Assembly: GCA_002688775.1 (NCBI GenBank) | Contig: NZDH01000013.1 | Coordinates: 1 to 55,067 of the forward strand | Reading direction: 5' to 3' | Length of the DNA stretch: 55,067 nucleotides | Source: Candidatus Woesearchaeota archaeon | GTDB lineage: Archaea; Nanobdellota; Nanobdellia; Woesearchaeales; GW2011-AR4 | Shown here: piece after piece, positions 37,466 to 42,947 of the stretch | How positions within the stretch are numbered: the first letter of the stretch is position 1 | Layout of the letters: every line of letters begins with the position of its first letter | The notes under the pieces: generated by a model | Told to the model about the DNA's origin: nothing | Databases searched by the model: none | What the model saw: only the letters and a program-made list of their open reading frames with translations | Position numbers and translations under genes: made by a program

Positions 37466-38209
37466 ATGGAATTTGATTTATCTCAAATAAAATTAAGTAA
37501 TAATGATATTAAAAGATGTCTAGTTTTGCCTAAAAAACCTTCTAAAGAATTGGCAGAATTTATTGGGATATTGACGGGTGATGGTTATATAAGCAATGAC
37601 AAAAATAAAAATTCATATATTGTTGAAATAGCTGGAAATAAAATATTGGATAAAGAATATTTAGAGAGTTACATAACCAATCTTATCAAGAGATTGTTTA
37701 ATATCAAACCCAAATTATATTATAAAAGCCAACAGAATACAATGTATGTTAGAATGTTGTCAAAGGGACTATATAGTTATCTCTTAACAATTGGTTTCAA
37801 AACTGGCAAGAAAGAACAAATTGGGATTCCAACTTGGATATTGCATGATAATGGATTAATGTTTTCTTTTATTAAAGGAGTAATAGACACAGATGGCTCC
37901 CTAATGTTAATTAATAAAAAATCAAAAAAATCAAAGTTTTATCCTATTGTGTGTATAAAAGTAAAAAGTAAAGTTTTAGTAAGAAAAATTGGAAGATTTC
38001 TAAAGAAATTTGGATTTAGAGTTAATATAATAGAAGATGAATTAAGAGCGGATAAAAGAGGCTACAAAGAAACCATAATTTCGTCTGTAATTCTTTCTGG
38101 AAGGTCAAATTTAAATTTGTGGGTGAATATTATCAATTTTAGAAACAAGCGACATCTCGATAAGTATAATCGCTATAAAATGAGTATAAATGGGGCGGAC
38201 GGAATTTGA
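37466..38209 (+). CDS. Free-standing LAGLIDADG homing endonuclease
   Basis: 247 residues with two dodecapeptide motifs, LAEFIGILTGDGYI (about residue 29) and FIKGVIDTDGSLML (about 134), so a monomeric two-motif enzyme that cuts a long asymmetric DNA site. No intein splicing blocks are present, so it is free-standing. A GGTGAT ribosome binding site precedes the ATG. The last codons overlap the 3' tRNA-like half on the opposite strand, and the shared CCACTGGACATG promoter lies upstream. Family members spread introns, inteins or themselves. Confidence 0.9.
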   Translation: MEFDLSQIKLSNNDIKRCLVLPKKPSKELAEFIGILTGDGYISNDKNKNSYIVEIAGNKILDKEYLESYITNLIKRLFNIKPKLYYKSQQNTMYVRMLSKGLYSYLLTIGFKTGKKEQIGIPTWILHDNGLMFSFIKGVIDTDGSLMLINKKSKKSKFYPIVCIKVKSKVLVRKIGRFLKKFGFRVNIIEDELRADKRGYKETIISSVILSGRSNLNLWVNIINFRNKRHLDKYNRYKMSINGADGI

Positions 38210-38355
38210 ATCCGTGATTTTGGAAGACCACTAAACGTGAATCTTTCACCACGGTATCTGGTAATCATCGCCCGTAGGCTCATAATACCATGATACTTCA
38301 GCCGTTTAAGCTGCTTTTTTGAAGCAAGTGCTCTCCCAGGCTGAGCTACCGTTCT
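38191..38355 (-). tRNA. tRNA-like locus: 5' and 3' tRNA halves, unresolved
   Basis: On the minus strand, 38355 starts AGAACGG, then TA and a textbook D arm (GCTC-AGCCTGGGA-GAGC, with G18G19). About 115 nt later comes a perfect T arm (ACGGA TTCAAAT TCCGT) and CCGCCCC plus A (38191-38215), with C48 before it. A TATA box (38373-38382) lies about 20 nt before the 5' end, so the locus is probably transcribed. The two acceptor strands make only four of seven pairs; all three mismatches are A opposite C. I could not form an anticodon stem. It may be a multi-intron tRNA, split halves, or an integration-scarred tRNA. Confidence 0.5.
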
Positions 38356-38443
38356 GGTTCTACAAGCATGCACTTATAAAATCCCCATAAGCTACCCAAC
38401 CTTAAAACTCAGAACAAGTAACAAATTTAAAAGACTTTCGGAT

Positions 38444-39968: not shown

Positions 39969-42947
39969 ATGAGAGAACTACCTGAAAAACCAAAGGAGAT
40001 AAGGCAGATTAGTGAAACAGTTTGGGAAGTGCCAACATCTCACAAAAAAGGAATGTTGGTGCCGGCCAGGATTTACGCAACAAAAAAGCTGCTTCAGGAT
40101 ATGGACGCTGGTGTATTTAATCAAGTAACTAATGTAGCTTGTCTTCCGGGAATACAAAAATACGCTTATTGCATGCCAGATGGTCATTGGGGTTACGGTT
40201 TTCCCATCGGCGGTGTTGCTGCTTTTGATTCAGAAACAGGAGTTATAAGTCCAGGTGGAATTGGTTTTGATATAAATTGCTTAGTAAGAGATTCAAAAAT
40301 AATGACAGAACATGGTTATAAAAGGTCTATTCAAGATTTTGAATCTGATTTTATTGATGTAGATAACCTTAATTCAAATTTTATACTAAAAACTAGGAAT
40401 TGTATACAATCTGTTCTTTCCTTTGATATGTCCCAAAAGTTGTTTTCTTCCAAAGAAATAGCATTTTTTATGAAGAAAAAACATTTTGGTTCAATATTTC
40501 AAATTCAAACACGATTAGGTTATACAATTCAAGTTACAGAAGATCATCCAATACTAACCAAAAAAGGAATGATAAAAGCAGAAAATGTAAGAAAAGGTCA
40601 TGAAATAGCTATTCATCCATTCGAAGGTGTCAATTTTGAAGAATTAAAGGATGGACTACTAATAAAATCAGAAACAATTTTTACAAAACAAGAGAAAGAT
40701 GAACTTAAAAAAAGAGATTTACTTTATCTTAAATTAAACAATCCAAAGATTCCGATTATAGCTAAATTATTTGGCTATTTGTTGGGGGATGGTAGTATCT
40801 ACCTTTCTGGAAAGAAAGGATTTGTTTGTGCTTATGGTTCTGAAGAAGATTTAAAAGAAATACAAGATGATTTTAAAAAATTAGGCTTTTCTGCAAAAAT
40901 TTATTCAAGAAAAAGAAATCATAAAATACCAACTAAGTATGGGGATATAAAGTTTGAAGCAGATAATTTTGAATTACACTTACCATCAAATTCATTAGCA
41001 AAGTTATACTTTGCACTTGGATACCCTCAAGGTACTAAAACAGCTGTTTCTTACTTAATCCCCAACTGGATATTAGAAAGTCCATTATGGATCAAAAGAT
41101 TGTTCCTATCAGGATTCTTTGGAGCTGAACTTTCAAGCCCTAGAACACACACAAAAACTGGTTTTGATTGTCCTACTGTTTCAATTAATAAAAATACTGT
41201 ACTTTTGGATAATGTGAGAGAATTTTGCATTCAAATAATGAATTTATTAGAAGAATTTGGAATAAACACCCATAAATTATTAGAAAGAAAAGATTATAAA
41301 AATAGATTTGGTCCAACTCATAGAGTAAAATTACAAATATCTTCTGAAGAAAAAAATTTATTAAAATTATGGTCAAAAATCGGATTTTCTTACAATAAAA
41401 AGAGAGAAACATTATCCCATATAGCTATTGTCTATATCAAAGAAAAGAAATTATTGACAAAAATAAGGAAAAATACAGCAATTAAAGTCAAAGAATTCAG
41501 AAAAAAGGGTTTAAAAGTAAAAGAAGTCAAAAAATTATTGGAATCTCCTTTTACAAATAAAAGATTTATCCATAGACATTATTATGAAAATGCTGGTCAG
41601 AGAATTACTTTATCTTTCATATCCTTTAATGATTTTGTAAAAAACAAACTTAAAGAAATTAAAAAATATGGAACTTTATTTGACCAAATAGAATCCATTT
41701 CTAAAAAAACCTACGATGACTACGTCTATGATTTTAATATCCCGAAAACCCATAATTTTATTGCAAACAATATAGTTGTATCAAACTGCGGAATGCGTTT
41801 GGTTACAACAAATCTTACTTTCAAAGACGTCCAGCCAAAACTAAGAGAATTAGTAGACACTATGTTCAAAACCGTACCTGCAGGAGTTGGTTCAAGAGGT
41901 TTTGTTGATGCTTCTAAAGAACAATTTAAGGAAATCATTACAGATGGCTCAAAATGGTGTGTTGAAAATGGCTATGGCTGGCAAGAAGATCTTGAAAGAA
42001 CAGAAGGTTATGGGAAAATTGACTGGGCCGATCCTGAAAAAGTAAGCCAAAAAGCTCTAGATCGTGGAATTAAACAATTAGGAACTTTAGGTTCTGGAAA
42101 TCATTATCTTGAAATCCAAGTTGCAAGAGCAGAGAATATTTTTGATCAGGAATTAGCTAAAAAATTTGGAATACACACGCCAGACCAGGTTGTCATTATG
42201 GTTCATTGCGGCTCAAGAGGATTTGGTCACCAAATCGGAACAGATTACTTAAGAATTTTCGAGCCTCTGATGAAAAAGCACGGAATCAATATTGCAGATC
42301 GTGAACTTGCATGCGCACCATTCCAAAGCAAAGAAGGCCAGGACTATTACAAAGCAATGGCTTGCGCAGCTAATATGGCTTTTGCCAACAGACAGGTCAT
42401 TTTGCACAGGATAAGGGAAGGTTTTTCAAAAGTTTTCAGCACAGAAGCTGAAAAGCTTGACATGCACATGGTCTATGATGTTGCACACAACATTGCAAAA
42501 TTAGAAGAACACGATGTTGATGGACAAAGGAAAAAATTAGTTGTCCATAGAAAAGGATCAACACGAGCATTTCCCCCTAATCATCCTGAATTAGCTGATT
42601 TATACAGAGAAACAGGCCAGCCAGTAATCATAGGCGGTTCAATGGAAACAGGATCATACTTGCTTGTTGGAACTCAAAAAGCAATGGATGAAACATTTGG
42701 AAGCACAGCCCATGGTTCAGGAAGAACAATGTCACGTACAGCTGCAAAAAGATTAGTAAGGGGGGATAAACTCCAAAAGGATATGGAAAAAAGAGGGATA
42801 TACGTAAAAGCAGTATCTATGCCAGGATTGGCTGAAGAATCAGGTATTTCATACAAAAACATAAATGACGTAATAGATGCTGTTGCAAAAGCTGGAATTT
42901 CAAAACCGGTTGTTGGATTGAAACCAGTTGGAAATGTGAAAGGATAA
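39969..42947 (+). CDS. rtcB: RNA ligase RtcB with an intein
   Basis: GTP-dependent 3'-phosphate RNA ligase that joins tRNA exons after intron removal, in keeping with the intron-bearing tRNA here. The host protein is about 489 residues after splicing. N-extein blocks include MPDGHWGYGFPIGGVAAFD and GVISPGGIGFDIN; the C-extein begins CGMRLVTT and has SGNHYLEIQ, HCGSRGFGH, YDVAHNIAKLEEH and GSMETGSYLLVGT. The intein sits directly before the metal-binding cysteine. AGGAG precedes the ATG. Archease, its activator, is two genes downstream. Confidence 0.95.
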   Translation: MRELPEKPKEIRQISETVWEVPTSHKKGMLVPARIYATKKLLQDMDAGVFNQVTNVACLPGIQKYAYCMPDGHWGYGFPIGGVAAFDSETGVISPGGIGFDINCLVRDSKIMTEHGYKRSIQDFESDFIDVDNLNSNFILKTRNCIQSVLSFDMSQKLFSSKEIAFFMKKKHFGSIFQIQTRLGYTIQVTEDHPILTKKGMIKAENVRKGHEIAIHPFEGVNFEELKDGLLIKSETIFTKQEKDELKKRDLLYLKLNNPKIPIIAKLFGYLLGDGSIYLSGKKGFVCAYGSEEDLKEIQDDFKKLGFSAKIYSRKRNHKIPTKYGDIKFEADNFELHLPSNSLAKLYFALGYPQGTKTAVSYLIPNWILESPLWIKRLFLSGFFGAELSSPRTHTKTGFDCPTVSINKNTVLLDNVREFCIQIMNLLEEFGINTHKLLERKDYKNRFGPTHRVKLQISSEEKNLLKLWSKIGFSYNKKRETLSHIAIVYIKEKKLLTKIRKNTAIKVKEFRKKGLKVKEVKKLLESPFTNKRFIHRHYYENAGQRITLSFISFNDFVKNKLKEIKKYGTLFDQIESISKKTYDDYVYDFNIPKTHNFIANNIVVSNCGMRLVTTNLTFKDVQPKLRELVDTMFKTVPAGVGSRGFVDASKEQFKEIITDGSKWCVENGYGWQEDLERTEGYGKIDWADPEKVSQKALDRGIKQLGTLGSGNHYLEIQVARAENIFDQELAKKFGIHTPDQVVIMVHCGSRGFGHQIGTDYLRIFEPLMKKHGINIADRELACAPFQSKEGQDYYKAMACAANMAFANRQVILHRIREGFSKVFSTEAEKLDMHMVYDVAHNIAKLEEHDVDGQRKKLVVHRKGSTRAFPPNHPELADLYRETGQPVIIGGSMETGSYLLVGTQKAMDETFGSTAHGSGRTMSRTAAKRLVRGDKLQKDMEKRGIYVKAVSMPGLAEESGISYKNINDVIDAVAKAGISKPVVGLKPVGNVKG
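40278..41786 (+). other. Intein with LAGLIDADG endonuclease inside RtcB
   Basis: Residues 104-606 (503 residues). It begins with Cys (CLVRDSKIMTEHG), has the B-block TEDHPILT, an endonuclease region with AKLFGYLLGDGSIY and a weaker second motif (LFLSGFFGAEL), and ends YDFNIPKTHNFIANNIVVSN followed by the +1 Cys. The penultimate residue is Ser where His is usual, which may slow or alter Asn cyclisation. The insertion point next to the catalytic Cys matches the known site in Pyrococcus RtcB. Confidence 0.92.

What the first reader, a model, noticed from the sequence alone, without database searches (positions are those of the whole stretch)
38191..38355. tRNA 5' and 3' halves with acceptor strands that fail to pair
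Both halves look like intact tRNA modules and a TATA box precedes the 5' half, yet the acceptor pairs at only four of seven positions, each mismatch being A opposite C. No anticodon stem could be formed. Options: a multi-intron tRNA whose true exons I missed, split tRNA halves that work in trans (as in Nanoarchaeum), RNA editing of the A-C mismatches, or a chimera left by integration of the adjacent homing endonuclease region.
Basis: partly seen in the sequence, partly recalled or inferred. Interest (0 to 1): 0.65.

Follow-up and report, generated by a model that had tools for sequence, protein, structure and literature searches.

The report
Phenylalanine tRNA gene with four introns
The apparent broken tRNA is a complete phenylalanine tRNA gene of a tiny archaeon (Woesearchaeota), read from the minus strand and cut into five pieces by four small introns, one of them inside the acceptor stem and seemingly helped out by a leader segment that temporarily pairs with the tRNA body; close relatives carry up to five introns in the same gene, more than the three usually quoted as the maximum.

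Summary
The two "halves" are real, but they belong to one minus-strand tRNA-Phe(GAA) gene, window 38386-38191, with four bulge-helix-bulge (BHB) introns: acceptor stem 4/5, 27/28, 37/38 and 46/47. The 5' end was missed. The mature RNA starts with GGGG at 38386-38383, and intron 1, which holds the supposed TATA box, separates it from CGG. Splicing turns the mismatched AGAACGG into GGGGCGG, which pairs 7/7 with CCGCCCC. ARAGORN calls the spliced sequence tRNA-Phe(gaa). Orthologues at the same locus carry 0 to 5 introns at shared positions. Over 41 introns the BHB central helix pairs in 147 of 164 positions, against at most 75 in any shifted register.

Beyond that: (1) four introns here and five in relatives exceed the maximum of three stated in the papers I could read. 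(2) The acceptor intron recurs in 25 of 353 genomes of the order, with a 5' leader complementary to the D-arm and compensatory changes, including in a tRNA-Pro with a different D-arm. (3) LAGLIDADG homing-endonuclease genes often sit beside tRNA genes in these archaea. No RNA data exist; splicing is inferred.

The parts
38383..38386 (-). Exon 1: GGGG (tRNA positions 1-4)
   Evidence: Splice alignment; intact GGGGCGG in relatives without this intron
38352..38382 (-).
   Evidence: BHB bulges GG|A and AA|C; hairpin with compensatory changes across 26 distinct sequences; splicing restores 7/7 acceptor
38328..38351 (-). Exon 2: CGG TA GCTC AGCCTGGGA GAGC A C (positions 5-27)
38306..38327 (-). Intron 2, 27/28, 22 nt; central helix GAGC/GCTT
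   Evidence: absent in G010, whose gene reads GAGCACACGG directly
38296..38305 (-). Exon 3: ACGG CTGAAG (positions 28-37, anticodon GAA)
38256..38295 (-). Intron 3, canonical 37/38, 40 nt
   Evidence: absent in G002, G011, G014, G016 and G017 (CTGAAGACCG uninterrupted)
38247..38255 (-). Exon 4: A CCGTG GTG (positions 38-46)
38218..38246 (-). Intron 4, variable loop 46/47, 29 nt; central helix GTGG/CCAA (CCAC in relatives)
   Evidence: absent in G003 and G017
38191..38217 (-). Exon 5: TC ACGGA TTCAAAT TCCGT CCGCCCC A (positions 47-73; no encoded CCA)
38394..38401 (-). 5' leader strand GGTTGGGT, complementary to the D-arm 5' strand GCTCAGCC at 38346-38339; proposed outer helix of the acceptor-intron BHB
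   Evidence: MFE folds; compensatory pairs
38425..38432 (-). Likely TATA box TTTTAAAT of the tRNA gene
   Evidence: Conserved upstream of most orthologues of the genus at this locus (leaders printed); inference
37466..38209 (+). Free-standing LAGLIDADG homing-endonuclease-like gene, convergent with the tRNA gene and overlapping its last 19 bases; absent from this place in most relatives
   Evidence: LAGLIDADG_3 45.5 bits; 74% identical orthologue at the same place only in G011

Best explanation
The feature is a complete, single-locus tRNA-Phe(GAA) gene on the minus strand (38386-38191) with four BHB introns. Inferred pathway: transcription from the TTTTAAAT promoter gives a precursor with a leader of about 20 nt. 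The leader segment GGUUGGGU pairs with the D-arm strand GCUCAGCC and thereby closes the outer helix of the BHB around the acceptor-stem intron (cuts GG^A and AA^C). The genome's tRNA splicing endonuclease cuts this and the other three BHBs. Exons are presumably joined by the RtcB ligase, whose gene lies next door. The acceptor GGGGCGG/CCGCCCC can then form, the D-arm leaves the leader, and RNase P and CCA addition finish the tRNA. Shown: exons, intron positions, restored pairing, BHB register, conservation, leader/D-arm covariation. Inferred: actual splicing, its order, and the role of the leader.
For: ARAGORN calls the spliced sequence tRNA-Phe(gaa). Orthologues at the same locus, between the OB-fold gene and the large membrane-protein gene, have the same exons with 0, 2, 3, 4 or 5 introns at overlapping positions, so each of the window's introns is absent from some relative. 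The central helix pairs in 147/164 positions over 41 introns, against at most 75 in shifted registers and a permutation maximum of 98. Splicing at 4/5 gives a 7/7 acceptor in 22 of 22 distinct tRNA-Phe loci with a called GGGN exon and an intact 3' end, with many different acceptor sequences; the contiguous reading gives 3-5 of 7. The 3' strand was not part of the search model, and 14 of these loci were not used to build it. The leader/D-arm and intron helices show 93% paired cells and 66 double-change cells, against 17 in shuffles and 14 or fewer when slid. The genome holds a splicing endonuclease (PF01974) and RtcB. No other tRNA-Phe appeared among the 19 tRNAs found in the 73%-complete genome.
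Against: No transcript or splicing data. Assemblies are metagenomic. Three of the window's four central helices contain one mismatch (3/4 pairs), so relaxed BHB motifs must be cleavable. The minimum-energy fold of intron 1 pairs GG with CC in a register other than the proposed BHB.
Confidence: 0.96

Rival explanations
1. Split tRNA: the two halves belong to different trans-spliced tRNAs whose partners lie elsewhere.
For: Halves fail to pair when read contiguously. In relative G014 the 5' half is missing beside an intact 3' half.
Against: All exons of one tRNA-Phe lie in order at this locus and splice to a perfect cloverleaf. The same holds in relatives. In G014 no 5' half was found elsewhere.
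Confidence: 0.01
2. A decayed tRNA pseudogene or a chimera left by insertion of the adjacent homing endonuclease gene.
For: The HEG overlaps the last 19 bases of the gene.
Against: Exons are intact, with every stem fully paired after splicing. Introns keep hairpins with compensatory changes. The same multi-intron gene exists without the HEG in G002, G010, G016 and G017.
Confidence: 0.02
3. RNA editing of the A-C mismatches in an otherwise contiguous tRNA.
For: The three mismatches are all A opposite C.
Against: The nucleotides concerned are the intron end AGAA, which varies in relatives (AGTT, ATTA, ATAA) while GGGN upstream always completes the acceptor.
Confidence: 0.005
4. The leader/D-arm helix is incidental: the acceptor intron is spliced without it.
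For: Relaxed BHB motifs (hBH, HBh') are known substrates (PMC4090602). Some leader-pair variation is G-U only. The test of own against swapped leader/D-arm pairs is weak because most D-arms are alike (8.0 against 7.2 of 9).
Against: Compensatory double changes at five of nine leader pairs, and the tRNA-Pro copies carry a different leader matching their different D-arm. The leader is shorter in loci of the genus without the acceptor intron.
Confidence: 0.15

Closest known systems
Multi-intron pre-tRNAs of Thermoproteales (Pyrobaculum, Thermofilum)
   Same: Several BHB introns at canonical and noncanonical positions in one tRNA gene, removed by the archaeal splicing endonuclease
   Different: Reported maximum is three introns (PMC4033280, PMC8450103, PMC4390854); here four, and five in relatives G016 and G011. 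The host is a Woesearchaeote in which only one endonuclease gene is detected, not an alpha-beta pair.
Split tRNAs (Nanoarchaeum equitans, Staphylothermus, Aeropyrum)
   Same: A leader sequence pairs to build the BHB at an exon junction
   Different: Here the leader is in cis, on the same transcript, and pairs with the tRNA's own D-arm rather than with a partner leader.
Circularly permuted tRNAs (Thermofilum pendens, Cyanidioschyzon merolae)
   Same: BHB-dependent assembly of a disrupted tRNA
   Different: Exon order here is the normal 5' to 3' order.
Free-standing homing endonuclease genes next to introns
   Same: A LAGLIDADG gene adjacent to, not within, an intron-bearing gene
   Different: The introns are protein-spliced BHB tRNA introns; no evidence yet that this enzyme moves them.

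Membership tests
Archaeal BHB-intron tRNA gene | Removal of introns yields a complete canonical tRNA | tested here: met
   ARAGORN tRNA-Phe(gaa), all stems fully paired
Archaeal BHB-intron tRNA gene | BHB motif at each junction (4-bp helix between two 3-nt bulges) | tested here: met
   147/164 over 41 introns in the right register; the window's introns have 3, 4, 3 and 3 of 4 pairs, i.e. relaxed at three of four
Archaeal BHB-intron tRNA gene | Splicing endonuclease encoded in the genome | tested here: met
   PF01974/PF02778 protein, 190 aa, closest solved sequence N. equitans 3iey_A
Archaeal BHB-intron tRNA gene | Spliced transcript in the cell | not testable with these tools
   No RNA data
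Split tRNA | Halves at separate loci, complementary leaders | tested here: not met
   All exons in cis and in order
Circularly permuted tRNA | 3' half upstream of 5' half | tested here: not met
   Normal exon order
Group I intron in tRNA | Self-splicing ribozyme core | tested here: not met
   Introns are 22-40 nt; no Rfam family at gathering score in the window
LAGLIDADG homing endonuclease (neighbour 37466-38209) | LAGLIDADG domain | tested here: met
   PF14528 45.5 bits, cut-off 22.5; activity and target site not tested

The most novel reading that the evidence does not exclude
A leader-assisted acceptor-stem intron: a conserved 5' leader sequesters the tRNA's own D-arm to build the splicing motif around the intron at 4/5 (3/4 in tRNA-Pro), so that splicing must precede cloverleaf folding and RNase P. 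It is part of an intron-dense tRNA-Phe with up to five introns, whose turnover may be driven by homing endonuclease genes that settle beside tRNA genes.
Probability: 0.6. Interest if true: 0.7.

Novelty: new variant of a known kind. Interest (0 to 1): 0.55.

Why it matters
It explains why standard callers miss the tRNA-Phe of these archaea and raises the number of introns seen in one tRNA gene above the three cited in reviews. It also describes an intron in the acceptor stem that seems to need a leader acting as a temporary partner of the D-arm, an in-cis counterpart of split-tRNA leaders. The association of homing endonuclease genes with tRNA genes gives a testable agent for tRNA intron gain, an open question since large-scale tRNA intron transposition was proposed in Thermoproteales (cited in PMC4390854).

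Tried and rejected
ARAGORN and Rfam gathering scan of the raw window: nothing. Permissive Rfam scan of the region: only chance hits. Reading the central part as a second, independent tRNA: rejected once relatives showed it to be the anticodon arm plus introns. Search for a trans 5' half in G014: none convincing. Search for a second (beta) endonuclease subunit by profile and by the genome's own protein: one gene per genome, apart from a second full copy in G013, a contig-end fragment in G002 and one hit at E 0.09 in G017; a very divergent beta subunit cannot be excluded. A first attempt to parse introns in the distant loci automatically was abandoned in favour of the acceptor test. Literature: no paper found on four or more introns in one archaeal tRNA or on Woesearchaeota tRNA introns; the key papers of Sugahara and colleagues are not held (for the 2007 one), so acceptor-stem introns may already be listed there.

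Full report
WHAT WAS CHECKED. The reported modules are at 38191-38355 on the minus strand. Contiguous reading gives AGAACGG against CCGCCCC, four pairs and three A-C mismatches, as described. ARAGORN and Rfam find no tRNA in the window. The window is contig C18 of a 1.04-Mb, 73%-complete genome. Named relatives of its neighbour gene are Candidatus Woesearchaeota metagenome assemblies.

COMPARATIVE KEY. A DNA search of 59 related genomes hit the same locus, between the OB-fold gene and the large membrane-protein gene, in several genomes of the genus. The sequences differ by clean insertions. G010 has an uninterrupted acceptor strand GGGGCGG; G014 and G016 run straight through the anticodon loop (CTGAAGACCG); G002 has GGGGCGT opposite ACGCCCC. 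A splice-aware alignment then gave for the window: GGGG | CGGTAGCTCAGCCTGGGAGAGCAC | ACGGCTGAAG | ACCGTGGTG | TCACGGATTCAAATTCCGTCCGCCCCA, with introns of 31, 22, 40 and 29 nt at 4/5, 27/28, 37/38 and 46/47. ARAGORN calls the joined sequence tRNA-Phe(gaa). Relatives at this locus: L052 none; G003 two; G002, G012 and G027 three; G010, G013, G017 and L046 four; G011 and G016 five. Positions used include 4/5, 14/15, 18/19, 20/21, 27/28, 37/38, 46/47 and 59/60.

BHB TEST. In the archaeal motif the four nucleotides before the last two of the 5' exon pair with the four before the last two of the intron. Over 41 introns 147 of 164 such positions pair. Shifting the 3' boundary by any amount from -8 to +5 gives 40-75, and shuffling partners gives 73 +/- 7, maximum 98. 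Where the joined sequence left the exact boundary open, the slide with the best pairing was chosen, which favours the observed value slightly; most introns had a single possible placement.

THE ACCEPTOR INTRON. Folding the 5' regions of eight loci showed the intron hairpin and, unexpectedly, a helix between the 5' leader (GGUUGGGU in the window) and the D-arm strand GCUCAGCC. On eight sequences the structure has 95.5% paired cells and 12 double-change cells against 3 in shuffles. A covariance model built from them found the element in 25 of 353 genomes of the order, 20 genera. With 26 distinct sequences there are 93% paired cells, 66 double changes against 17 in shuffles, and far lower values when slid; this alignment was fitted to the structure, which favours it. 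The independent check is the 3' acceptor strand, which the model does not contain: splicing at 4/5 makes it pair 7/7 in all 22 tRNA-Phe loci with a GGGN exon and an intact 3' end, 14 of them new, while the contiguous reading gives 3-5. One further locus (L170) gives 6/7 in the model's register, and one (L165) is cut by a contig end. Two hits (L171, L172) are a different tRNA, read here by eye as tRNA-Pro with the intron at 3/4; its leader AAGCUACC matches its own different D-arm GGUAGCUU. I read the leader as an in-cis helper strand that builds the outer helix of the splicing motif. That it is needed, and that splicing precedes RNase P, is inference.

MACHINERY. The genome has one recognisable splicing endonuclease gene, with N- and C-terminal domains and nearest to an N. 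equitans subunit. Nearly all related genomes also show one gene. Reviews link noncanonical and multiple introns to enzymes other than the homotetramer (PMC4033280; PMC4090602), so a single alpha-type gene here would be unexpected, but a divergent beta subunit cannot be excluded. RtcB, the exon ligase, is encoded at 39969-42947 and carries an intein.

HOMING ENDONUCLEASES. The gene at 37466-38209 is a LAGLIDADG protein. A 74% identical gene sits at the same place only in G011. Of 30 loci with homologues, 12 have a tRNA within 200 bp and 15 within 1.5 kb (and the tRNA-Phe of L101 and L102), while eight endonuclease-gene loci have none. With about 45 tRNAs per 1.2 Mb (my assumption) about one in 45 would be expected within 200 bp. 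Two acceptor-intron tRNAs, G013 tRNA-Phe and G266 tRNA-Pro, have a LAGLIDADG-like gene ending just upstream of or at the leader. This suggests, but does not show, that such enzymes target tRNA genes and may help introns move. The loci are not all independent and were chosen by similarity score.

KNOWN OR NEW. Intron-containing archaeal tRNAs, noncanonical positions and multiple introns are known; the papers read give three as the maximum (PMC4033280; PMC8450103; PMC4390854; PMC3218864; PMC3293823). Four and five introns, and a leader-assisted acceptor-stem intron, were not found in the library, which lacks the main subscription papers. I therefore call it a new variant of a known kind.

Noticed in passing
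window 37466-38209; L101-L130: LAGLIDADG homing-endonuclease genes of Woesearchaeota are frequently adjacent to tRNA genes (12 of 30 loci within 200 bp).
   Followed up: partly
L084 / L079 (G014, JACPMW010000006.1): Only the 3' part of tRNA-Phe (from intron 27/28 on) follows the OB-fold gene; promoter and 5' exons are missing and no trans 5' half was found. Deletion, misassembly or a true split gene.
   Followed up: partly
window 39969-42947: RtcB tRNA ligase with an inserted intein (Intein_splicing and LAGLIDADG domains), next to the multi-intron tRNA gene.
   Followed up: no
L049 6160-7165 (G012): At the place where the window has the homing endonuclease gene, G012 carries two small genes that by eye look like a nucleotidyltransferase/HEPN toxin-antitoxin pair, so the 3' flank of tRNA-Phe seems to be an insertion spot.
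   Followed up: no
L170 (G030): By eye a third tRNA-Phe with five introns, including an insertion of about 45 nt in the T-arm.
   Followed up: partly
L015 (G000:C7:57863-57983): Another tRNA of the same genome, by eye with two introns, one in the T-loop, missed by ARAGORN.
   Followed up: no
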